Origin: Antarctobacter sediminis
GTDB lineage: Bacteria; Pseudomonadota; Alphaproteobacteria; Rhodobacterales; Rhodobacteraceae
Reading direction: 5' to 3'
Assembly: GCF_019218285.1 (NCBI RefSeq)
Contig: NZ_JAHUZG010000001.1
Coordinates: 496,001-560,000, forward strand
DNA length: 64,000 nt
The position numbers and the translations under genes are program-made. Below are positions 28,798 to 41,347 of the stretch, in pieces (the first letter of the stretch is position 1; each line of letters opens with the position of its first letter). The notes beneath the pieces were generated by a model. It saw only the letters and a program-made list of their open reading frames with translations. It was not told where the DNA came from and searched no databases.

Positions 28798-29013
28798 CCT
28801 TGGGCATTCGGCGGTTCCGGAACCGATGGGAAACCCGGCAGCGTTGTGCATCTGTCCCGGAAACCAGCCCAAAATTTGTGCATTTGCCCAAGTCTGTCAC
28901 CCGCTTGCGGCATTGCCGGGCGGAATGGGCTTTGACCGACGCTGCGGCTTTACTTCCTTTCCTGCGGGCGCTTGTCTGATCGGACAAGCACAACCGGGAC
29001 AGACAGGAACACC

Positions 29014-32000
29014 ATGGCGATCACGGCGAGCATCCGGCATCTTACGCATTACAAATACGACCGTCCGGTCACGCTATCGCCACAGATCATTCGTTTGCGC
29101 CCGGCCCCCCACAGCCGGACCCGAGTGATCAGCCATTCACTCAAGGTGGAACCGGCGGGGCATTTCGTGAACCACCAGCAGGACATCTATGGCAACTGGA
29201 TGGCCCGTTTCGTCTTTCCCGAACCGGTGACCGAATTCCGGGTCGAGGTCGATCTTGTCGCGGATATGACCGTTTACAACCCGTTCGATTTCTTCGTCGA
29301 TGAGGTCGCCCGCGAATGGCCCTTCGAGTACCCCGAAGAAATCGCCGAGGACCTTGCCGTCTATCGCAAGACAGAGCCGCTGACGCCCTTGCTAAGGAAA
29401 TGGGTCGCCAGCGTTCCGCGCAAAAAACAGGTCACCATCGACATGCTGGTGGACCTCAACCGCCGCTTGGAACAGGACGTCGAATACCTGATCCGGATGG
29501 AACCCGGGGTTCAGGCACCAGAAGAAACACTGGAAAAGAAATCCGGGTCCTGCCGCGACAGCAGTTGGCTGTTGATCCATATCCTCCGGCACTTGGGGTT
29601 TGCGGCGCGTTTTGTCTCGGGCTACCTGATCCAGCTGAAACCGGATCTGGAGGCGCTGGATGGGCCTTCGGGCACGGATCATGACTTCACCGATCTGCAC
29701 GCATGGTGCGAGGTCTACCTGCCCGGCGCGGGCTGGGTTGGGCTGGACCCGACCAGCGGGCTTTTGACCGGCGAAAGCCATATCCCGCTCGCCGCCACGC
29801 CCCATTATAGCAACGCCGCGCCCATCGTTGGCGGCTTTAGCGGGCATAAGGACACCGAGACCGAATTCGATTTCGCGATGGAGGTGCATCGCGTCGCTGA
29901 ACACCCGCGCATCACCAAACCCTTCTCGGAAGACAGCTGGGACGCGCTGGATGCGCTTGGTCGCAAGGTCGATGCCGAGATCAAAGCGCAGGACATGCGC
30001 CTGACCATGGGCGGTGAGCCGACCTTTGTATCCATCGATGATTTCGAAAGCGCCGAGTGGAACACCGGAGCCGTCGGACCACAGAAACGCGCGCTGGCCG
30101 ATGACCTGATCCGTCGCTTGCGGGATCGTTTCGCTCCCGGCGGTTTCCTGCATTTCGGACAGGGCAAGTGGTATCCCGGCGAAACCCTGCCGCGCTGGAC
30201 GTTTTCGTTGTACTGGCGGCGCGATGGCAAGCCGATCTGGAAGAACCTTGACCTGGTGGCGAGGGAAACCGCCAAGGGTGCCACCGCCGAGGATGCCGAA
30301 ACGTTCATGACAGGGTTCGCCAAGGCGCTGGATATCGGAACGGAATACGTCCAACCCGCCTTCGAAGACCCGGCGGTCTGGATCCTGAAAGAGGCCGAAC
30401 TGCCGGAAAACGTCACGCCCGAGGATTCCCGCCTCAAAGACCCCGAAGCACGGGCCCGCATTGCTCGTGTCTTTGAACGCGGGCTGGACCGGCCCGCCGG
30501 GTTCATCCTGCCGATCCAGCGTTGGCAGTCGCGGGCCTTTGGGCGCAACTGGCGATCGGAGCGCTGGCGCACGCGGCGCGGCCATCTGTTCCTGATCCCG
30601 GGCGACAGCCCCGTCGGGTTCCGCCTGCCTCTGGGCACGTTGCCGTATGTCAGCCCCTCGGCCTATCCCTATGTCTATCCGACAGATCCGACAGTGCCTG
30701 TCGAGGATCTGCCGGAGTATCATCAGATGGATGAAAAGCGGCAGGCGCTGTTCGCGGAACTGCGCAAGATCGCGCAGGAAGAGCGCGCGGTACTGCCCGA
30801 AACCACGCCGGGCCGGGAACAGCCGGTCACGCGGCTGCGCGCAGATGAACCGGCAGAGGCCCAGCGCGAACAGGCGGTGACACCGGAGGGCGGCGTGGTG
30901 CGCACGGCCATCGCGGTCGAACCGCGCGATGGCAAGCTGTGCATCTTTATGCCGCCGGTCGAGGCGCTGGAGGATTACCTCGAACTGATTTCAACCGCGG
31001 AACAGACGGCCGAGGCGCTGGATCTGCCGCTGCATATCGAAGGCTATACGCCGCCGCATGACTCGCGACTGAACGTCATCAAGGTCGCGCCCGATCCCGG
31101 CGTGATCGAGGTGAACGTGCATCCTGCCTCCAGCTGGGAGGAATGCGTCGACATCACCAGCGCCGTCTACGAGGAAGCCCGCCAATGCCGCCTTGGCGCG
31201 GACAAGTTCATGATCGACGGCAAACATACCGGCACCGGGGGCGGCAACCATGTGGTTGTCGGCGGGGCGACGACCATGGACTCGCCCTTCCTCCGGCGGC
31301 CGGACCTGTTGCGGTCACTGATCCTGTACATGCAGCGGCATCCGTCGCTGAGCTATCTGTTCTCGGGCACCTTCATAGGTCCGACCAGTCAGGCCCCGCG
31401 GATTGACGAGGCGCGCCACGATACCCTGTATGAACTGGAAATCGCGCTGTCGCAGATTCCCGATCCGTCCGAAGGTGAACCGCCGCAACCGTGGCTGGTG
31501 GACCGCCTGCTGCGCAACATCCTGATCGACGTGACGGGCAACACCCACCGCGCCGAAATCTGCATCGACAAGCTTTATTCGCCGGACGGCCCGACCGGGC
31601 GGCTTGGCCTGGTGGAATTCCGCGGGTTCGAGATGCCGCCCGACGCAAGGATGAGCCTTGCGCAGCAGGTTCTGTTGCGGGCGCTGCTGGTGCGGCTGTG
31701 GAAATCCCCGGTCAAGGGGCAGCCGGTGCGCTGGGGCACCACGCTGCATGACCGGTTCATGCTGCCTGAGTTTGTCTGGCAGGATTTTCTTGATGTTCTG
31801 CGCGACCTCAAGGAGCACGGGTTCGACCTGCGTCCCGAATGGTACGAGGCGCAGCGCGAATTCCGCTTTCCCTTTGCAGGCGAGATCGAGGTCGAGGATG
31901 TCCACCTTGAGGTGCGGCAGGCGCTGGAGCCGTGGCATGTGCTTGGTGAACGCGGTGCCATTGGCGGGACCGTGCGTTATACGGACAGTTCCGTGGAACG

Positions 32001-32415
32001 GATGCAGGTGCAACTGACGGCGCTGGACCCTAGCCGTTATGTCGTCTGCTGCAACCAGCGGCAGGTGCCGCTGCATGCCACCGGGACCAGCGGGCGCAAG
32101 GTGGGCGGCGTGCGGTTCAAGGCATGGCAACCGGCCGAGGCCTTGCATCCTGTGCTGCCGGTCAATGCGCCATTGATCTTCGATATCTTTGACACCTGGT
32201 CGGGGCGTGCCATCGGCGGGTGCACCTATCATGTGGCGCACCCCGGCGGGCGCAGCTATGATACCTTCCCGGTCAATACGAACGAAGCGGATGCCCGCCG
32301 CCTGGCGCGGTTCCAGAAATGGGGGCACACGCCCGGAACCTACTGGCCGGCTACTGAAAACCCGCACCCGGAGTTCCCGATGACCCTGGATCTGCGCCGC
32401 GCGCCCTGGATCTGA
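29014..32415 (+). CDS. Transglutaminase-DUF2126 fusion protein
   Basis: A 1133-residue cytosolic protein. An N-terminal bacterial transglutaminase-associated beta domain (about 1-100) precedes a transglutaminase-like core with catalytic Cys180 (GSCRDSS), His229 (DLHAWCEVY) and Asp245 (LDPTSG). A very large DUF2126 region (about 330-1130) follows. This architecture occurs in clusters with ATP-grasp/alpha-E proteins proposed to build or modify peptides. The ATG at 29014 begins the conserved [13 protein letters not shown]; the open frame starts 14 codons earlier. Two bases separate it from the next gene, a tight operon. Confidence 0.9.
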
Positions 32416-32417
32416 CA

Positions 32418-34817
32418 ATGGCCGAGACCGGCGCCGCCGATGCGGCGCGCAAGGCGCCGCTTGACTTCTACCAGCCACTCGACGGAGTGGCGGATGAACT
32501 GCTGCGCCCGGATGGGAGCCTGCGCCCGGTCTGGCAACCTATGATCGACCACCTGGCCGGGCGCGCCACCGAACAGGTGGCGCAGGATTTTGCGCGCGGT
32601 GATCTCTATCTACAGGACGCAGGTGTCTATTACCGGCAGTACACCGGTGATGAATCCACCATGCGTGGTTGGCCGCTGAGCCATATTCCCGTCATCATAG
32701 GCGAGTCCGAATGGAACGGATTGGCCGAAGGCATCGCTCAGCGGGCCGAACTGTTGGAACGCACCATGGCCGACCTTTATGGTCCGGCCGATCTGGTGCG
32801 GCGGGGCATCCTGCCGCCGCAACTGATCGCGCGCAACGCGGAATGGCTGCGTCCTCTGGTCGGTGTGAAACCGCGTTCGGATCATTTCCTGCATTTCCTT
32901 GCCTTCGAGATAGGCCGCTCGCCCGATGGCAGCTGGTTGGTGCTGGGCGACCGGGCACAGGCTCCCTCCGGGGCGGGTTTTGCGCTGGAAAACCGGATGG
33001 CCACGCAACGGGTGTTCACCGACCTTTATACCGAGGCCAATGTACACCGGTTGGCTGGGTTCTTTCGCACCTTTCGTGACCGGCTGACCCAATTGCGCGG
33101 CCCCGAACAGGGGCAGGTCGCCATCCTGACCCCGGGCCAGCACACGGATACCTATTTCGAACACGCCTATATTGCCCGCTACCTTGGGTTCCTGCTGCTG
33201 GAATCCGAGGATCTGGTCAGCGTCGACGGCAAGCTGATGGTGCGCACGATCAACGGCTTGGAACCGGTCAGCGTTCTTTGGCGCAGGCTGGATTCGCGTT
33301 TTGCCGATCCTCTGGAACTGGACGAAAGCTCGGCCTTGGGGACGCCCGGAATGGTCGGCACCCTGCGGTCCGGGGCTGTGACCATGCTCAATTGTCTTGG
33401 CTCCGGGGTTTTGGAGGCGCGCGCGCTGATGGCCTTTATGCCGCGCATCGCCGAGGCGCTGCTGGGCGAGCCGCTGAAGCTGCCGAATATCGCAACATGG
33501 TGGTGCGGTCAGGCCAGCGAACGCGCCTATGTCAGCGAAAACCTCGAGCGCATGATGATCGGCCCCGCGCTGTCGACGCATCTGCCCTTTGATATCGACA
33601 GTTCGACCGCACTTGGCGGGCGTTTCCGTGACAGCGCGCGCGGCCCGGTGCGTGAGTGGCTGGACAAGAACGGCGGCGCGCTGGTCGGGCAAGAGGCCGT
33701 AACCCTGTCGACCACGCCTGCGATGATCGACGGCAAGCTGTTGCCACGCCCCATGGTGGTTCGCGTCTTTGCCGCTCGCACGGCCGAGGGCTGGACCGTC
33801 ATGCCGGGGGGATATGCGCGTATCGGGCGGACCAATGATCCCACCGCACTGGCGATGCAGAATGGCGGCTCGGTCGCCGATGTCTGGGTGGTCAGCGATA
33901 CGCCGGTCGAAGTCGATACACTGTCGGGGCAACAGCCCGGGCCGTTCATCCGGCGCATGCCGGGGCGGCTTCCGTCACGGGCGGCGGACAACCTGTTTTG
34001 GCTGGGCCGTTATGTCGAACGGGCGGATTTCACGGCACGGACCCTGCGGGCCTATCACCTGCGGCTGGAGGACAATGGCGGCACGCCGATGCCGGTCTTC
34101 GATCAGCTTGGCCGCTTTCTCGAGGGGCGCGGGCTGTATCTGGCGCAACCCATGCCGGACCTTTTCCTGAGCCTGCTGGACAGCGCGCGGGGCTGTGCGT
34201 CAAAGGTGCGCGACCGGTTCTCTGACGATGGGTGGTACGCGCTGGACGAGCTTGAGGCGGCGGCCCGCGATCTGGCCGGGGTGGTTGCGCCGGGGGATGT
34301 CACGGGCCGTGCCCTCAGCCAGCTTTTGCGCAAGCTGGCCGGGTTCGCCGGTCTGGTGAATGACAATATGTTCCGCTTTTCCGGCTGGCGCTTTATGACC
34401 ATGGGCCGTGCGCTGGAACGCGGGGTCCAGATCTCGGACCTGCTGTCGGTCTTTGCCGCCAGTGGCGTTCCGCAAGGCAGCCTTGATGCCGCGCTGGAAA
34501 TCGGTGACAGCGTAATGACCCACCGGCGGCGCTATTCGGTGCAGACAAACCGGAACACGGTGATCGACCTCTTGGCGCTGGACCCGGAAAACCCGAGATC
34601 GGTGATCTATCAGGCGGCGGTGCTGCGGGACCAGCAGGGGAAATTGCCCCGGCGGACCAAAACCAGCCAACTGACTGTCGTGGGCCGCCGAATCCTGCGG
34701 GTTCATACCGAATTGTCGGTCCTGACACCCGAGGAACTGGACAGCGCGGCGCTGGCGAAACTGGCCGATGATCTTCAGGCGGTCTCGGACGCCATCCACA
34801 CGGAATACATGGGGTAG
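32418..34817 (+). CDS. Circularly permuted ATP-grasp type 2 and alpha-E domain fusion
   Basis: A 799-residue protein with two modules. Residues about 80-480 are a circularly permuted ATP-grasp (QDAGVYYRQY, HIPVIIGESEWNGL, ILTPGQHTDTYFEHAY, GRTNDPTALAMQNGGSVADVWV). Residues about 510-795 are a helical alpha-E domain (RAADNLFWLGRYVERADFTARTLR). These are often two separate genes and are fused here. ATP-grasp proteins of this class are predicted amide or peptide-bond ligases working with transglutaminase-fold enzymes. It begins two bases after the upstream stop and ends four bases before the next start. Confidence 0.9.
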   Translation: MAETGAADAARKAPLDFYQPLDGVADELLRPDGSLRPVWQPMIDHLAGRATEQVAQDFARGDLYLQDAGVYYRQYTGDESTMRGWPLSHIPVIIGESEWNGLAEGIAQRAELLERTMADLYGPADLVRRGILPPQLIARNAEWLRPLVGVKPRSDHFLHFLAFEIGRSPDGSWLVLGDRAQAPSGAGFALENRMATQRVFTDLYTEANVHRLAGFFRTFRDRLTQLRGPEQGQVAILTPGQHTDTYFEHAYIARYLGFLLLESEDLVSVDGKLMVRTINGLEPVSVLWRRLDSRFADPLELDESSALGTPGMVGTLRSGAVTMLNCLGSGVLEARALMAFMPRIAEALLGEPLKLPNIATWWCGQASERAYVSENLERMMIGPALSTHLPFDIDSSTALGGRFRDSARGPVREWLDKNGGALVGQEAVTLSTTPAMIDGKLLPRPMVVRVFAARTAEGWTVMPGGYARIGRTNDPTALAMQNGGSVADVWVVSDTPVEVDTLSGQQPGPFIRRMPGRLPSRAADNLFWLGRYVERADFTARTLRAYHLRLEDNGGTPMPVFDQLGRFLEGRGLYLAQPMPDLFLSLLDSARGCASKVRDRFSDDGWYALDELEAAARDLAGVVAPGDVTGRALSQLLRKLAGFAGLVNDNMFRFSGWRFMTMGRALERGVQISDLLSVFAASGVPQGSLDAALEIGDSVMTHRRRYSVQTNRNTVIDLLALDPENPRSVIYQAAVLRDQQGKLPRRTKTSQLTVVGRRILRVHTELSVLTPEELDSAALAKLADDLQAVSDAIHTEYMG

Positions 34818-34821
34818 CGGC

Positions 34822-35739
34822 ATGCTCTACGATGTCACCTTGGCTGTCCGCTATGCCTACAACCAATCCGCGGCGGCGGCGCGGATGCATCTGCGTATGA
34901 TGCCCGGAAGCGGTCCGGCGCAGCGTTTGGTTTCGGGCCTGCTGGAGGCCGATCCCATGCCCGGATTCCGGCGTGACCGGATCGATTTCTTTGGCAATGC
35001 CCTGACTGAAATCGCCTATGACACACCCATTGACGAGGTGAGCTTTCGCTTCAGCGGGCGGATCCGCCGCAATGAGTTGCCACAGGAACTGGACCTGTCC
35101 TGTGCGCTGAGCGACATGCGCCGGGAACTGGCCGAGGTGGCCTCGTTGTCATCGGATGCGCCGCATCATTTCCTTGGCGCTTCAGATCGTGTGGTGCCGG
35201 TGCCGTCGATCACGGCCTTTGCACGCGGGATCACGCGGCCGGATCAGCCTGTCCTGTCGGTGGTTCAGTTGATCTCACGCGCGTTGCATCAAGAGATCAC
35301 CTTTGATGCCACGGCCACCGATGTGACCACCGATCCGGCCGAGGCCTTTGCCAACCGTCGGGGCGTCTGTCAGGACATCAGTCACATTATGATTGCCGCC
35401 TTGCGCGGCATCGGCGTTCCGGCGGGCTATGTCTCGGGATTCTTGCGGACCGAACCCCCGGAAGGTCAGCCAAGGCTGGCCGGAGCGGATGCCATGCATG
35501 CCTGGGTGCGGGCCTGGTGCGGGTCCGAGATGGGCTGGATTGAGATCGATCCCACCAATGACATGCGGGTGGGCGCCGATCATATCAGCGTGGCGCACGG
35601 CCGGGACTATGCCGATGTGGCGCCGGTCAAGGGGTCGTTGCGCAGCTCGGGTCTGCACAGCACGGCGCATAGTGTCGACGTGGTCCCGGTTTCGGATCGC
35701 GGTCCGGCCGAGTCCGCAGGGCGCAGCACGACCGACTGA
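34822..35739 (+). CDS. Transglutaminase-like cysteine protease/amidase
   Basis: A 305-residue protein with the bacterial transglutaminase N-terminal domain and a transglutaminase core. The catalytic residues are Cys183 (RRGVCQDISH), His226 (DAMHAWVRAW) and Asp243 (IEIDPTNDM). Such proteins may hydrolyse or transfer amide bonds of peptides made by neighbouring ATP-grasp ligases. The ATG at 34822 follows GGGGTAGCGGC in the tail of the preceding gene. The Anbu-type proteasome gene often found next in related clusters is absent; a convergent gene begins instead. Confidence 0.9.
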   Translation: MLYDVTLAVRYAYNQSAAAARMHLRMMPGSGPAQRLVSGLLEADPMPGFRRDRIDFFGNALTEIAYDTPIDEVSFRFSGRIRRNELPQELDLSCALSDMRRELAEVASLSSDAPHHFLGASDRVVPVPSITAFARGITRPDQPVLSVVQLISRALHQEITFDATATDVTTDPAEAFANRRGVCQDISHIMIAALRGIGVPAGYVSGFLRTEPPEGQPRLAGADAMHAWVRAWCGSEMGWIEIDPTNDMRVGADHISVAHGRDYADVAPVKGSLRSSGLHSTAHSVDVVPVSDRGPAESAGRSTTD

Positions 35740-35754: not shown

Positions 35755-38700
35755 TCAACGGAAAGGCGGAGCATACATCAGGCCGCCGTCCAGCCAAATG
35801 CGGTTTTGCGCGCGCTCGATGTTCAGCCCGCTGCCCGCGCCGAAATGGCGTTCGTAGATCTCGCCATAGTTTCCGACGGCAAGGATCGCCTGCAAGGCCC
35901 AGTCTTTGGGCAGATCCATCATCGGGCCAAGATCGGCTTCGACCCCCAGAAGCCGCCGGGTTTCGGGATTGAAAGAGCGAAGCCCCGCATCGACATTCAA
36001 CTGTGTCAGGCCCAGTTCCTCTGCAGCGATCAGCGCAAAGATCGTCCAGTTCACAAAGTCGCGGAAGTTCTCGTTGCCCGGCATGACGGGACGGATCGGG
36101 ACAACCGGGGATTCGACCTCCTGAAAGATTTCATAGCGCGACCGGTCGCGCCCGGCCGAGGCCAGCCCGGCGGCCAGCCGACCGGCATCGCCCACAACGC
36201 CGCCGCATTTCCCCTGGCTCATTGCCTGCATCCCCGAAATGGCATCGGCCACCGGAACAAGCGTCGAATCCTCTGATCCGAACAGGTGGCGGGCGAAAAG
36301 GCGGGAGTGCCCCGAAACCAGCGCACAGATCGGCAATCCCGATTGTTTCAGTGTATCCTCATGGCTGCCCTTGGGCAGGATCGCCCCGTAAAGAGGGTAC
36401 ATCAGCGGAACGCCACGGATGCTGCCGGCCTGAAGGTCGCCGCTCAGGTCATTGCTGAGCGCGGTGGGGATGATGTCCGCCCGTTCGTCGGCAAGCATTT
36501 TGGCCCAGTCGTCATCCGCGCCGATCACATAGTCGACGCGATCGGAATCCTTGAAGATGGCGGCCGCCAATGCGCGACATATGTCAGGCGCGAAACCCAC
36601 GCGGCGGCCTTGTTGAAGGCTGCTATAGGGGGGCAGCGCGTCATGCACTCCGCAGCGCAGGGTTCCGCGCTGACGGATCTCTCGCACCGAGATTGAACTC
36701 GTGCGCAGGCGACCGGCGCGGCGGTTGTCCGTGGGAACGTTGGTCAGGAAACTCACCGGGTGCAGGCCGCCGGCATTGGACGTGAGGTTGAGCCCAAGCG
36801 GCAGACCAAGTTCCTCCGACAGGTTGCGTTCGAATATCTCTGTATAATTGCCGGTCGCTGCGGTGATCCGCAGCATCAGGTCATCGGGCAGGTTGAAGGC
36901 CCGTCCGCCCAATGCCACCGTGCCAAGATCTGCGCCATCCGGTTCGTTTTGCAGGTAATCCACGATTTCCGGGATGGTATCCTTCTGCAACTCCATCTGT
37001 TCGGACAGAAGAAGGGCCTGGATCACGCCGCTGACCAGATGTGTCCATTGCGGGTCGCCGTGACGGACCAGCGGTCCCAAGGGTTCTTTCGAGATGATTT
37101 CCGGCAAGATGATGTGATCGCCCGGGGCACCGAAGCCGCGGCGCATCACGGCCAGACCGGTGGCATCGCCGGTCAACACATCGCAGGCCCCGGCCAGGTA
37201 CTGCTGTTCGGCTTCGGCCATATTTGCAACGGGCTGCGGTTCATAGATCATGCCGTTGGCGCGGAAATACTCGGCAACCGCCAGTTCCGAACTCGTGCCG
37301 GTACGGAGACAGACGACGGCACCGTCCAGATTGGTGGCCCGGTCAATACCCAGAGAGCGAGGTGCCATGAAACCCTGACCATCGAAATAGGTGATGCCGG
37401 GGTAATCGAACTTCAGGTCCACGTCGCGGCTGAACGTCCAGCTTGTATTGCGCGACAGGATGTCGATTTCGCCCGAAGCCAGCGCGACAAACCGGTTTCG
37501 CGCGCCAAGCGGCACGAATTGCACCGCGTTAGCATCATCCAGAACCGCCGCCGCCACGGCGCGACAGACATCCACGTCCAGACCTTGCCATTGGCCAAGA
37601 TTGTCGGCGAAGGAAAAGCCGGGCAGGCCGGTGCTGACACCGCAGACAAGATAGCCGCGCGCGATCACGTCCGCCTGTGTCCGGCCACCGTTTCGGGCCA
37701 TGGTCTCCAGCTCGGCGCGGGTGATCGGAGCCATGAGCTTGGACGGCGGGGAAACCAGCGGCGTGGGATCGGCAAAACTTGCCGATACCGGAGCTTTGGG
37801 TTTGGGCGCGGGTTTCGTTGCAACCGGTTCAGATGTTTTCGGTGTCGTTGACCGCAGACGGGTCAGAACCTCGGCGGCTTTGGTCGCGGCAGCGCGGCCG
37901 ACATGTGCGCGGGTGATCTGTTCCAAAGCGGCGATCTGGGCCGTGCGATCTGCCAGTAGCAAGGCATTGGTCAGCGCCGTATTGGCTGCGGTTTCCGCGT
38001 CACGCAGGGCGGATTCCGCCTCGAACAGGGCCAGTTGCACCTGAAACCCGAAGGCGGTTCCGTCAAATTCGCTCAACAGGGAGCGGAGCGCGTCAAGGTC
38101 TCCATCTGCCTTGGCTCGGTCCAGCCGGGTCTGCGCCTGTGCATCGCGGTCGCGGCTGGCAAGGTCGCTTTCCAACCGGCTGGCGGCGGCCAGCGCCTTG
38201 TCGGCGGCATCGGTTCCGGCGAACTGGCTGATGACGCCGCGCAGGGCCGAGATCCGGGAGCGAAGGTCGGCGGTCAGCAGTGCATCGGACAGCGCCTGCG
38301 CCGCCTGCGTTTCCCGTGCGCTTGTGCTGTCCCCGGCCAGCCGGTCCAATGCCATGGTCGCCTTGGCCGCGGCTTCGCTGTTCGGGAAACGGTCGATGAC
38401 GCGGCGCAGGGCCTCGGCCTGTCGGGTTGGATCAAATATCAGCAACGCGTCGGTCAGCGCGCTGGTGGCCGCATCGCCGCCGCCGCCCGCTGCCTCGGGC
38501 GTCACGATCTCGAACCCGAGGTCCAGTGCCTGATTTATCAGCGCAATTTTGTGGCCGCTGTTGAAACTGTCGCCAGAGGGGCGCAACCCGCCCTGATTGT
38601 GTAGAGCCACCACTGCCAGCGTGCGGGCATCCAGCAGCAGAGAGCCAGAAGACCCCCCCGTGCTTTCGCAGCTGTGCCGCAGAGGTGAGCGTTCGGGCGG

Positions 38701-39387
38701 AATTTCGGCCTGACGCCGGTGCACCTGACAGGTGCCGGTGGAATATTGCTGAGGTTCGCCAGCAGGGTGGTGGATCATCCGCAGTTCCTGAAAGGGATCC
38801 ACGCTGGGCATCATCTTCATCGGGACATGGCCGCCAAGGTCGCCGTTCGGATCACCGCCGATAACCTGAAGCACCATGGCATCCAGCTTTTTGTCCAATT
38901 TCAGTTCGCGCGGGGACACAAGATAGGTGCGCACCGCACCCGTGTCGTCCTTGGAGGTATAATTGAAATTGACCCGTGCCTCGCGGACAATGCTGAACCC
39001 GGCGCGCACCAGATCGGGATCGTAGAAACAATGCACGTTGGTCAACAGCCGGTTGTCCGGCAAGAGCGTGGCCGTGCAATTGCCCAGAAACGGGCTGTTC
39101 AACGTAAAAGTGCGACCGCCGCGCGTGATCTCGCGGGGTTTGCCATCGGGGGTGACAAGGCAGGTTTGCAAGCGACCGATGTGCCGCGCCACCTTCTTTA
39201 CGTCCGACGGCGCGCGGTTGATCGATAACCAGAAGCCGCGCTTTTGTTCGCCGTCCACCACCATCGACTGGAAAGCCGAGCTTTGTGCGTCGATTTCAAA
39301 GCCGAAACCGCAGTCCGCGAGGCCCTGCGCCTGTGCGGACGGCGCAAGGCCGATAGCAAGGCAAAAGGCGGGAATCCATCTTGGCAC
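35755..39387 (-). CDS. Secreted serine protease fused to helical repeats and two tandem amino-acid-binding (AapJ-like) domains
   Basis: A 1210-residue exported protein with an architecture I do not recognise. The signal peptide (MPRWIPAFCLAIGLAPSAQA) is followed by a V8/trypsin-like protease (about 25-290) with His119 (LLTNVHCF), Asp169 (KKLDAMVLQ) and Ser247 (TGGSSGSLL). Four degenerate helical repeats of roughly 45-60 residues fill 305-545. Two family 3 solute-binding domains follow, about 565-870 (LVCGVSTGLPGFSF, GLDVDVCRAVAAAV) and about 895-1210 (TLRCGVHDALPPYS, ending GGLMYAPPFR). Both keep the NYxEI(F/Y)ER C-terminal block of AapJ. I chose the GTG at 39387, after GGGGAGAG, because it gives the signal peptide. 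No transporter permease is nearby. Confidence 0.85.
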   Translation of the reverse strand: MPRWIPAFCLAIGLAPSAQAQGLADCGFGFEIDAQSSAFQSMVVDGEQKRGFWLSINRAPSDVKKVARHIGRLQTCLVTPDGKPREITRGGRTFTLNSPFLGNCTATLLPDNRLLTNVHCFYDPDLVRAGFSIVREARVNFNYTSKDDTGAVRTYLVSPRELKLDKKLDAMVLQVIGGDPNGDLGGHVPMKMMPSVDPFQELRMIHHPAGEPQQYSTGTCQVHRRQAEIPPERSPLRHSCESTGGSSGSLLLDARTLAVVALHNQGGLRPSGDSFNSGHKIALINQALDLGFEIVTPEAAGGGGDAATSALTDALLIFDPTRQAEALRRVIDRFPNSEAAAKATMALDRLAGDSTSARETQAAQALSDALLTADLRSRISALRGVISQFAGTDAADKALAAASRLESDLASRDRDAQAQTRLDRAKADGDLDALRSLLSEFDGTAFGFQVQLALFEAESALRDAETAANTALTNALLLADRTAQIAALEQITRAHVGRAAATKAAEVLTRLRSTTPKTSEPVATKPAPKPKAPVSASFADPTPLVSPPSKLMAPITRAELETMARNGGRTQADVIARGYLVCGVSTGLPGFSFADNLGQWQGLDVDVCRAVAAAVLDDANAVQFVPLGARNRFVALASGEIDILSRNTSWTFSRDVDLKFDYPGITYFDGQGFMAPRSLGIDRATNLDGAVVCLRTGTSSELAVAEYFRANGMIYEPQPVANMAEAEQQYLAGACDVLTGDATGLAVMRRGFGAPGDHIILPEIISKEPLGPLVRHGDPQWTHLVSGVIQALLLSEQMELQKDTIPEIVDYLQNEPDGADLGTVALGGRAFNLPDDLMLRITAATGNYTEIFERNLSEELGLPLGLNLTSNAGGLHPVSFLTNVPTDNRRAGRLRTSSISVREIRQRGTLRCGVHDALPPYSSLQQGRRVGFAPDICRALAAAIFKDSDRVDYVIGADDDWAKMLADERADIIPTALSNDLSGDLQAGSIRGVPLMYPLYGAILPKGSHEDTLKQSGLPICALVSGHSRLFARHLFGSEDSTLVPVADAISGMQAMSQGKCGGVVGDAGRLAAGLASAGRDRSRYEIFQEVESPVVPIRPVMPGNENFRDFVNWTIFALIAAEELGLTQLNVDAGLRSFNPETRRLLGVEADLGPMMDLPKDWALQAILAVGNYGEIYERHFGAGSGLNIERAQNRIWLDGGLMYAPPFR

Positions 39388-39556: not shown

Positions 39557-41347
39557 ATGAGCTTTACCACACGGCCGGAACTGACCGGCACCTTTGGCAT
39601 GGTGACGTCGACCCATTGGCTGGCCAGCGCGGCGGGCATGAAGATGCTCGAGGCGGGCGGCAATGCCTTTGACGCTGCCGTGGCGGCGGGGATGGTGCTG
39701 ACAGTGGTCGAACCGCATCTGAACGGGTTGTTGGGGGATATGCCCGCGCTGGTCTGGCCGGCCGGGACCGACGCGCCGGTGATGATCTGCGGTCAGGGCA
39801 CGGCACCGGCCGCCGCGACCGTGGCACATTACCGGGCCGAGGGGCTGGACCTGATCCCCGGATCCGGCCTGTTGGCGACCGTGATCCCCGGCGCGTTCGA
39901 TGCGTGGATGGTGATGCTGCGCGACCATGGCCAGATGGAATTGCGCGATGTGCTGGCCCCGGCGATCCACTATGCCGGGGCAGGCCATCCGATCCTTGCC
40001 CGCGCCGCCGGGGTGATCGCCGACCATGCCGATCTGTTTCGCAAGGAATGGCCCAGTTCAGCAAGGGTCTGGCTGCCGGGTGATGCACCGCCGCCTCCGG
40101 GCGGCCTGTTTCGGAACCCCGACCTTGCCGCGACACTGACCCGGTTCTGCGACGAAGGCGCGGGCCCGGCTAGCCGCGAGGCACGGATCGACGCGGCGCG
40201 GCGCGCCTTTTACAGCGGGTTCGTGGCCGAGGCTATCGACGACTACCTGCGCGATGCTTGCGTCATGGATGGCACGGGGCAGCGGCGGCGCGGTGTTCTG
40301 ACCGGTGCGGACATGGCCGCATGGCAGGCCACCACCGAACCCGCACTGGCGGGCGAATATCACGGCTGGCGGGTCTGGAAAGGGGGTTTCTGGACACAGG
40401 GGCCGGCGTTGCTGCAATGCCTGAACATCCTGCGGCACACCGGAATAGAGGCCACCGGCCCGCGCGAGGCCGAGTTCCTGCACCTTGTTGTCGAGGCGAT
40501 GAAACTGGGGTTTGCCGACCGCGAGGCCTATTACGGCGATCCGCTGCACGCAGCGATCCCCGGCGAGCGGTTGTTGTCCGACAGCTATGCCGGGGAGCGT
40601 GCCGCGCTGATCGGCCCTTGGGCATCGCTGGAACAGCGCCCGGGGCGGGTGCCGGGTCTGGAGCATCTGGCCGACGCTTTCGTGGCACGCGCCGCCCGGG
40701 CGACGCCCAAGGGCACAGGCGCAGGCGGCGGCGAACCCACGATGGCCCATCTGCACCCCAGCGAAGGCGATACGGTGCATCTGGACGTGGTGGACCGCTG
40801 GGGCAATATGGTGTCGGCCACGCCATCTGGCGGCTGGTTGCAATCCAACCCGGTGATTCCGGGGCTGGGTGTGCCGCTGAACAGCCGCGCGCAGATGTTT
40901 TGGCTGGACGAAGGTTTGCCAACCACGCTGGCACCGGGCCGGCGCCCGCGAACCACCCTGACCCCGTCCATGGCGCGCGCGCCGGACGGCACGCGGCTGG
41001 CCTTTGGGACGCCCGGAGGTGACAGTCAGGACCAGTGGCAACTGATCCTGCTATTGCACCTTGTCCACCATGGGATGTCCCTGCAAGAGTCCATCGACGC
41101 GCCTCTGGTCCTGTCCGGACACCTGCAATCAAGCTTTTATCCCCGCGCGGCCGATCCGGGCGCCTTGCTGGCGGAGCCGGGCTTTGACCCCGGCACGATC
41201 CAGACCCTGCGTGCCCGGGGCCATCGCGTAACCGAGGCAGAGCCGTGGTCTCTGGGACGTCTGACGGCGGCGGCGCAGGGGCCGGATGGCATCCTGCGCG
41301 CGGCGGCCACGCCAAGGTTGATGCAAGCTTACGCAGTGGGGCGTTGA
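39557..41347 (+). CDS. Gamma-glutamyltransferase family Ntn-hydrolase
   Basis: A 596-residue GGT-family proenzyme. The N-terminal MVTSTHWLASAAGMKMLEAGGNAFDAAVAAG block and the autocleavage threonine at residue 406 (GDTVHLDVVDRWGNMVS) identify it. The cleaved threonine would be the nucleophile, as in E. coli GGT, where TTHYSVVD aligns. GPSxx and TTLTPSMA-like blocks follow. No signal peptide is evident, so it is probably cytosolic, unlike periplasmic GGT. Some relatives hydrolyse cephalosporin side chains or D-amino-acid amides rather than glutathione. ATG 39557 follows GGCGGAGAA. It is divergent from the protease-fusion gene across 169 bp. Confidence 0.88.
   Translation: MSFTTRPELTGTFGMVTSTHWLASAAGMKMLEAGGNAFDAAVAAGMVLTVVEPHLNGLLGDMPALVWPAGTDAPVMICGQGTAPAAATVAHYRAEGLDLIPGSGLLATVIPGAFDAWMVMLRDHGQMELRDVLAPAIHYAGAGHPILARAAGVIADHADLFRKEWPSSARVWLPGDAPPPPGGLFRNPDLAATLTRFCDEGAGPASREARIDAARRAFYSGFVAEAIDDYLRDACVMDGTGQRRRGVLTGADMAAWQATTEPALAGEYHGWRVWKGGFWTQGPALLQCLNILRHTGIEATGPREAEFLHLVVEAMKLGFADREAYYGDPLHAAIPGERLLSDSYAGERAALIGPWASLEQRPGRVPGLEHLADAFVARAARATPKGTGAGGGEPTMAHLHPSEGDTVHLDVVDRWGNMVSATPSGGWLQSNPVIPGLGVPLNSRAQMFWLDEGLPTTLAPGRRPRTTLTPSMARAPDGTRLAFGTPGGDSQDQWQLILLLHLVHHGMSLQESIDAPLVLSGHLQSSFYPRAADPGALLAEPGFDPGTIQTLRARGHRVTEAEPWSLGRLTAAAQGPDGILRAAATPRLMQAYAVGR

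What the first reader, a model, noticed from the sequence alone, without database searches (positions are those of the whole stretch)
35755..39387. Secreted protease fused to two amino-acid-binding domains: possible ligand-gated periplasmic protease
One 1210-residue polypeptide joins a signal peptide, a V8/trypsin-like protease with intact triad (His119, Asp169, Ser247), about four helical repeats, and two consecutive AapJ-like solute-binding domains. AapJ domains normally feed the AapQMP permeases, and no permease is next to this gene. Seen: the domain order and catalytic residues. Known: SBP domains close on ligand; V8-like proteases can be allosterically gated. Inferred: the tandem binding domains sense amino acids or peptide ends and gate the protease, or they capture products released by it. 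I know of no described protein with this layout.
Basis: partly seen in the sequence, partly recalled or inferred. Interest (0 to 1): 0.82.

Follow-up and report, generated by a model that had tools for sequence, protein, structure and literature searches.

The report
Secreted protease with swappable binding modules
A marine bacterium makes a secreted protein-cutting enzyme joined to two nutrient-binding domains, and its close relatives carry nearly the same enzyme with quite different binding parts attached, which suggests that this enzyme family works by plugging one cutting unit into interchangeable recognition parts.

Summary
Confirmed, with corrections. The gene lies on the minus strand (39387 to 35755, GTG start): signal peptide, chymotrypsin/V8-fold protease with intact triad, helical-repeat linker, two AapJ/BztA-type solute-binding domains (SBPs). 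It is no artefact: Maliponia aquimaris carries the same full layout. The bigger finding is that the protease is constant and the C-terminal module is exchanged. Among 18 close family members the modules are tandem or single SBP_bac_3, SBP_bac_8, PDZ, Sel1, SH3, beta-helix, or unrecognised. Between two Mameliella species about 90% identical in DNA on both sides (lepB/acpS locus), homology stops in the helical linker and resumes just after the stop codon. Between Antarctobacter heliothermus and its nearest relative the SBP core alone is a divergent allele (dS 1.40 against 0.20 for the protease). SBPs of two families were recruited, so at least twice. SBP1 keeps the amino-acid-pocket motif here and in Maliponia; SBP2 and the single-SBP orthologs lost it. 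Best reading: a secreted, perhaps Glu-cleaving endopeptidase aimed or controlled by an exchangeable recognition module. Ligand gating is possible for SBP1 but does not define the family. Constant peptidases with variable C-termini are known from intracellular conflict systems; no secreted SBP version appeared in the searches made.

The parts
35755..39387 (-). whole gene, 1210 aa, GTG start, stop included
   Evidence: full-length ortholog L088
39328..39387 (-). signal peptide, residues 1-20 (AQA/Q cleavage site by inspection; no predictor run)
   Evidence: sequence
38488..39324 (-). protease domain, residues 22-300; six cysteines conserved 21 of 21
   Evidence: Pfam Trypsin_2; AF2; Cys count; chymotrypsin-fold hits, V8 1qy6 among them
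39031..39033 (-). catalytic His119
38881..38883 (-). catalytic Asp169
38647..38649 (-). catalytic Ser247
38587..38610 (-). VALHNQGG, holding His263 (~His213) and Gly266 (~216) of a glutamyl-endopeptidase-type S1 pocket; Ser242 is ~190
37849..38478 (-). helical-repeat linker, residues 304-513; module breakpoints fall in this region in relatives
   Evidence: AF2; breakpoints in L077/L076/L097
37732..37839 (-). low-confidence Pro/Lys-rich hinge, residues 517-552
   Evidence: AF2 pLDDT under 50
36793..37731 (-). SBP1 (AapJ/BztA type), residues 553-865
37423..37455 (-). SBP1 pocket motif SRNTSWTFSRD, residues 645-655 (free relatives: ARNTTWTFSRD)
35758..36699 (-). SBP2, residues 897-1210, pocket motif lost (PTALSNDLSGD at 974-984)

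Best explanation
A secreted or periplasmic serine endopeptidase with one constant catalytic half and an exchangeable C-terminal recognition module. SHOWN by sequence: constant protease, helical linker, module replaced as a block at fixed chromosomal sites, SBP modules recruited from two SBP families (so at least twice). INFERRED: (1) export to an oxidising compartment (signal peptide, six invariant cysteines); (2) cleavage after Glu (Ser/Thr190 and His213 kept); (3) the module decides what the protease binds, where it sits or when it acts; in this copy SBP1 binds an acidic amino acid or a glutamyl peptide, while SBP2 serves as a structural or partner-binding domain; (4) module exchange lets the same protease be re-aimed between close relatives. 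Recognition by the module is the committed mechanism; whether it works by tethering/targeting or by conformational gating is left open, tethering being slightly favoured because modules without known moving parts (Sel1, SH3, beta-helix) sit on the same protease.
For: Triad, S/T190, H213 and six Cys in 21 of 21. Modules differ within the family: SBP_bac_3 x2 and x1, SBP_bac_8, PDZ, Sel1, SH3, beta-helix. L077/L076 share 89-92% DNA up to the linker and from within 15 bases after the stop, with no blast match in between; L097 likewise against L077 at 76-86%. L080/L079: protease dS 0.31, beta-helix against a degenerate AapJ. L074/L075: dS protease 0.20 (95% 0.14-0.28), SBP core 1.40 (1.02-2.11), last 41 codons 0.26, next gene 0.41: intragenic replacement. 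Tree of 18 proteases: the SBP label needs 3 changes. SBP1 motif kept in window and Maliponia. No full-length BztB-type match in G000. L077/L078 SBP_bac_8 module dN/dS about 0.1. A family member on conjugative plasmid pKUB257 offers a route for exchange.
Against: No protease activity, ligand, partner or location has been measured. The AF2 domain arrangement is not determined (pTM 0.42). SBP2 dN/dS of 0.70 between window and Maliponia (dS near saturation) would also fit weak constraint. Foldseek ranks FAM111A and Deg2 above Esp and V8, so Glu specificity rests on a few residues. The three changes of the SBP label could be one gain and two losses on the tree alone; only the SBP_bac_3/SBP_bac_8 difference shows two separate recruitments. 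The pocket motif is imperfectly diagnostic: the genus's own free AapJ-like proteins lack its Arg too. In L079 about 1.4 kb lies between the gene and acpS and was not examined.
Confidence: 0.6

Rival explanations
1. Ligand-gated protease: amino acid or glutamyl-peptide closure of SBP1 switches the protease, SBP2 acting as a relay, as tandem Venus-flytrap domains do in BvgS/EvgS and PDZ domains do in DegS (the DegS precedent is recalled).
For: SBP1 pocket motif kept in both tandem members; Foldseek finds the tandem-SBP sensors BvgS 4q0c and EvgS 9ilw; in BvgS one VFT is closed without ligand (PMC4352136 passages); DegS and AlgW are among the fold hits of the protease half.
Against: Siblings with a related protease carry beta-helix, Sel1 or SH3 modules; the single-SBP orthologs lost the motif; a 36-residue low-confidence hinge separates linker and SBP1, poor for strain transmission.
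Confidence: 0.2
2. Product capture: a Glu-type protease holds Glu/Gln/peptides that it releases, for uptake.
For: S1 pocket residues of Glu-cleaving enzymes beside a BztA-type SBP; the closest solved structure, 4z9n, holds glutathione; a gamma-glutamyltransferase-family gene lies next door.
Against: No full-length match in this genome to the permease-like gene that follows bztA in related genomes; S/T190 and H213 are the same in members with other modules.
Confidence: 0.08
3. Conflict or decoy role: modules are degenerate copies of periplasmic proteins that phages, toxins or rivals engage; binding of the intruder brings or triggers the protease.
For: Localised hypervariability and module exchange; pocket-motif loss in SBP2 and in the single SBPs, a degenerate AapJ remnant in L079; published parallel of constant peptidase plus variable effectors, in several systems inactive copies of cellular enzymes (PMC7159879).
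Against: [quoted passage not shown] PADLOC gives no match for the window protein and L012, and only weak RT-Protease/PtuA matches for L077 and L039 (4 proteins); no immunity or partner gene was seen to move with the module; SBP1 and the SBP_bac_8 module look constrained.
Confidence: 0.12
4. Accidental read-through fusion with little selected function for the SBPs.
For: SBP2 dN/dS 0.70; the single-SBP orthologs lack SBP2 and the pocket motif.
Against: Open frame over about 1.9 kb of SBP in two genera; SBP2s of both pair at 100/99 (bootstrap not settled), so the tandem predates their split or was transferred whole; SBP1 motif retained.
Confidence: 0.08

Closest known systems
Constant-peptidase / variable-C-terminus conflict systems (EACC1 'System 4', PMC7159879; section 33 and part 1 of section 35 read, other passages seen)
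   Same: Constant peptidase at the N-terminus, many alternative C-terminal domains, periplasmic-binding-protein domains among them
   Different: There: caspase, with a partner EACC1 gene, cytoplasmic or membrane-bound; here: secreted trypsin-fold enzyme, no such partner seen next to the window gene
Glutamyl endopeptidases / V8 type (PMC5508998, passages seen)
   Same: Fold, triad, Ser/Thr190, His213, Gly216 in 16 of 21
   Different: Known ones, as recalled, are small stand-alone enzymes without an SBP or helical linker
AapJ / BztA amino-acid SBPs (4z9n, Brucella ovis, glutathione bound)
   Same: Both lobes and the C-terminal extension; SBP1 pocket motif
   Different: Fused to a protease, in tandem, no cognate permease found, SBP2 motif lost
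BvgS/EvgS tandem Venus-flytrap sensors; GlnPQ SBD1-SBD2
   Same: Two SBP_bac_3-type domains in tandem
   Different: Output there is a kinase or a transporter; here a protease on the same chain
DegS/AlgW (HtrA) proteases
   Same: Periplasmic chymotrypsin-fold protease with a C-terminal recognition domain (recalled); a PDZ module occurs in L076
   Different: The module here is an SBP
Polymorphic toxins (PMC3482391, listing and start of abstract seen only)
   Same: Constant N-terminus, swapped C-terminus
   Different: The constant part is the enzyme; no toxin-like C-terminus recognised and no co-swapped immunity gene seen

Membership tests
Glutamyl endopeptidase (V8-type S1) | His-Asp-Ser triad in a chymotrypsin fold | tested here: met
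   21 of 21; fold hits 1qy6, 6tya
Glutamyl endopeptidase (V8-type S1) | Ser/Thr190 and His213 in S1 (PMC5508998) | tested here: met
   21 of 21 by alignment; Gly216 in 16 of 21
Glutamyl endopeptidase (V8-type S1) | Cleavage after Glu | not testable with these tools
   needs an assay
AapJ/BztA SBP (SBP_bac_3) | Pfam SBP_bac_3 above cut-off | tested here: met
   71.5 bits, two stretches
AapJ/BztA SBP (SBP_bac_3) | Pocket signature of free family members | tested here: inconclusive
   SBP1 kept, SBP2 lost; that the motif binds ligand is recalled
AapJ/BztA SBP (SBP_bac_3) | Works with an ABC permease | tested here: not met
   none among the neighbours identified; no full-length BztB-type match in G000
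Polymorphic toxin system | Toxin domain at the variable C-terminus | tested here: not met
   recognised modules are SBP, PDZ, Sel1, SH3, beta-helix; 2 of 18 unrecognised
Polymorphic toxin system | Immunity gene exchanged with the C-terminus | tested here: inconclusive
   acpS or the MFS gene follows closely in the exchange pairs L076/L077/L097 and L074/L075; the 1.4 kb behind L079 was not examined
EACC1 System 4 | Caspase plus 5' EACC1 gene | tested here: not met
   Trypsin_2; upstream neighbour is a divergent GGT-family gene
EACC1 System 4 | Highly variable C-terminal domains | tested here: met
BvgS-type VFT sensor | Transmembrane helix and kinase output | tested here: not met
   no kinase family matched; no transmembrane predictor was run

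The most novel reading that the evidence does not exclude
A secreted counterpart of the constant-peptidase conflict systems: roseobacters keep one periplasmic protease and continually swap onto it degenerate copies of their own envelope proteins (AapJ, PotD-like and other modules) as decoys or sensors of phages, toxins or competitors, the protease being the effector. The tandem SBP of this window would be one such bait.
Probability: 0.12. Interest if true: 0.85.

Novelty: new variant of a known kind. Interest (0 to 1): 0.62.

Why it matters
It shows solute-binding proteins of two families being recruited as C-terminal modules of a secreted protease, and gives natural same-locus exchanges between close species in which protease and flanks are well conserved and only the module changes. 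That makes the question 'what does the module do for a protease' directly testable by comparing neighbours, and it extends the constant-peptidase/variable-module theme to an exported enzyme.

Tried and rejected
Artefact or frameshift: rejected (same layout in L088). Longer upstream start at 39663 (1302 aa): rejected; the GTG at 39387 has a ribosome-site-like stretch and opens the signal peptide. G080, a 715-aa frame over an AapJ, looked like a second fusion: it is a chance open frame ahead of an ordinary bztA-like gene. Viral contigs with the protease alignment: none of 13 pattern matches confirmed. PADLOC: 4 proteins, no match for the window protein and L012, weak ones for L077 and L039. Functional link to neighbours: the GGT-family gene is found in part in L074 (109 of 596 residues) and in L075 up to the end of the fetched stretch (411 of 596, about 7.5 kb from the gene), not in L088; the nearest transglutaminase gene was found in none of 19 loci. 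SBP tree: long branches, bootstrap not settled; only the SBP2 pairing is leaned on. L011 carries no Pfam module; my script label 'propeller' is by eye only, as are the 'PDZ' of L012 and the PG-binding tail of L039; L090's PG-binding match and L097's PDZ match are below cut-off. Literature: none of the titles and abstract starts listed describes a protease-SBP fusion of this kind (searches listed 10 of 18 and 6 of 10; the library is open-access papers only). A search for Trypsin_2 plus SBP fusions across all bacteria could not be made; the distribution rests, the family and class ones being samples.
Full report
THE OBSERVATION. The finding is real but on the minus strand: 39387 to 35755, GTG start, 1210 aa, no stop or frameshift. 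Pfam gives Trypsin_2 at 105-262 and two SBP_bac_3 stretches above cut-off; NCBIfam gives only sub-cut-off models. The closest solved structure by sequence is 4z9n, titled a periplasmic binding protein from Brucella ovis with glutathione bound. AlphaFold2 gives mostly confident protease, helical linker and SBP domains but no domain arrangement (mean pLDDT 79.3, pTM 0.42); a protease-plus-linker model reaches pLDDT 88.2. That half matches chymotrypsin-fold proteases: FAM111A and Deg2 first, then Esp (6tya), V8 (1qy6) and DegS.

IT IS NOT AN ARTEFACT. Maliponia aquimaris (L088) has the same full layout in 1104 aa, protease 81% identical, both SBPs.

THE FAMILY. A profile of 13 protease domains found 36 loci in GTDB genomes, of which 14 (L088-L101) are at 40% identity or more and carry roseobacter or Rhodobacteraceae/alphaproteobacterial MAG titles, except one titled Enemella evansiae; the other 22 (27-36%) were not analysed, except that L102 was an alignment row. 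In samples, 10 of 394 genomes of the window's family matched at 1e-40, and 1 of 385 genomes of the class at 1e-30, the window's own. Triad, Ser/Thr190, His213 and six cysteines are present in 21 of 21 rows aligned, window included; the family is thus predicted active, exported and perhaps Glu-cleaving, by the criteria in PMC5508998 (passages).

CONSTANT PROTEASE, VARIABLE MODULE. Over the 18 rows of the protease tree the C-terminal modules are: SBP types 7 (window and L088 tandem SBP_bac_3; L074 and L075 single SBP_bac_3; L077 and L078 SBP_bac_8; L079 no Pfam match but a degenerate AapJ by hhalign, probability 97), beta-helix 4 (L012, L013, L080, L097), Sel1 3 (L039, L090, L099), PDZ 1 (L076, one match above and one just below cut-off), SH3 1 (L010), no match 2 (L011, L101). 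The L077 module matches a spermidine/putrescine-binding protein at 221 bits. Among more distant proteases, L041 has a beta-propeller (L177 only below cut-off) and L178 Sel1 with PG-binding. The own genome has 16 Trypsin_2 matches; of seven scanned six carry Sel1, PG-binding, beta-helix, SH3 or beta-propeller behind the protease and one a PG-binding domain ahead of it.

EXCHANGE AT FIXED SITES. Of 19 loci searched, 11 (9 distinct stretches, since L080/L100 and L087/L093 repeat each other) have lepB near the gene, and 8 of these (7 distinct) also acpS on the other side, close by except in L079, where about 1.4 kb intervene. L077 (M. alba) against L076 (Mameliella sp. MMSF_3455): 91.7% and 89.4% DNA identity up to the linker, no blast match through the module, 91.7% again from within 15 bases after the stop codon. 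L097 shows the same pattern against L077 at 76-86%. L080 and L079: protease dS 0.31, beta-helix against AapJ remnant. At the other locus (MFS gene downstream), L074 and L075: protease dS 0.20 (95% 0.14-0.28), linker 0.32, SBP core 1.40 (1.02-2.11), last 41 codons 0.26, MFS gene 0.41, next gene 0.37; nucleotide identity 91-94% in the protease, 58-68% in the SBP core, 79-95% downstream. A synonymous divergence seven times that of the protease and over three times that of the next gene, confined to the SBP core, is what replacement by a divergent allele gives and is not expected from relaxed selection. In contrast the SBP_bac_8 module of L077/L078 is conserved (dN/dS about 0.1). The own genome has acpS and lepB side by side without the protease gene (read by eye). 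A family member (55.6% identical protease; its Trypsin_2 score is below cut-off) sits on the conjugative plasmid pKUB257 of M. alba KU6B. SBPs of two families show at least two recruitments; the tree's three changes of the SBP label would make three if the L079 remnant is separate, but could be gain and loss.

THE SBPs HERE. Of 166 columns invariant in 25 free bztA-like proteins, SBP1 keeps 120 (window) and 110 (Maliponia), SBP2 68 and 69, the single SBPs of L074 and L075 92 and 82. The motif ARNTTWTFSRD of free members (five shown) is kept in both SBP1s (SRNTSWTFSRD, ARNTSWTLSRD) and lost in both SBP2s and both single SBPs. That this stretch lines the amino-acid pocket is recalled, not tested. 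Against over-reading it: the free AapJ-like protein of the window's own genus also lacks its Arg (6 of 6 rows). In related genomes bztA lies by ATP12 (24 of 25 loci) and, in the three loci read by eye, is followed by a permease-like gene (named from recall, not scanned); in 6 of 6 genomes of the window's genus a diverged bztA-like gene lies at the same site with a sixA-like gene beside it, and in the window's genome no permease is seen there by eye. Searching that permease: no full-length match in five of the six genus genomes, a 32% one in G299. Of eight other genomes it is present in six, absent in G025 and in G325, which I take for Maliponia from its frame lengths. Loss of this transporter is thus shared by most of the clade and is not tied to carrying the fusion.

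MECHANISM. Shown: a constant protease with block exchange of the C-terminal module. Inferred: the module sets target, place or timing. For this copy SBP1 may bind an acidic amino acid or glutamyl peptide. A decoy role is the boldest reading not excluded, in the light of PMC7159879 (section 33 and part 1 of section 35 read; passages).

COMPARISON AND NOVELTY. Constant peptidase plus variable C-terminus is a published theme for cytoplasmic or membrane-bound caspase systems, PBP domains included. What seems new is an exported trypsin-fold version with SBPs of two families recruited and with same-locus exchanges between close species. The literature searches listed no description; they cover open-access papers only.

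Noticed in passing
window 39.7-41.3 kb, + strand: Divergent neighbour is a gamma-glutamyltransferase-family gene (TIGR00066 235 bits, below the 358-bit equivalog cut-off); the nearest solved SBP (4z9n) holds glutathione. Found in part beside L074 and about 7.5 kb from the gene in L075, not in L088.
   Followed up: partly
window 28972-35739, + strand: Gene cluster converging on the protease gene: transglutaminase (34768) and circularly permuted ATP-grasp/alpha-E (32418) by Pfam; the 28972 gene not scanned.
   Followed up: no
L080 around 4976 (same as L100): Antarctobacter heliothermus copy at lepB/acpS has an in-frame stop directly ahead of the mature protease, so its signal peptide appears cut off; probably a broken gene.
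   Followed up: partly
L082 5291-6424: The window's genome keeps a diverged bztA-like gene next to ATP12/HAD genes, with no permease seen beside it, where related genomes have bztA followed by a permease-like gene.
   Followed up: partly
L040 659-6850 (own genome C1, about 830.7-836.8 kb): Two further long trypsin-fold proteases in tandem, one with a large beta-helix, one with PG-binding and weak Sel1, and a third Trypsin_2 match beside them.
   Followed up: no
L125 5929-8001 (plasmid pKUB257): Family member with Sel1 module on a conjugative plasmid, annotated 'SEL1-like repeat protein', about 2.7 kb from the gene annotated as type IV conjugative transfer protein, with the relaxase gene beyond it.
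   Followed up: partly
L092 / L010: Record titled Enemella evansiae (an actinobacterium, recalled) encodes a protease 71% identical to the roseobacter family, and the genome of equal contig length (G002) is placed in the window's family by the genome search; the record title is probably wrong.
   Followed up: no
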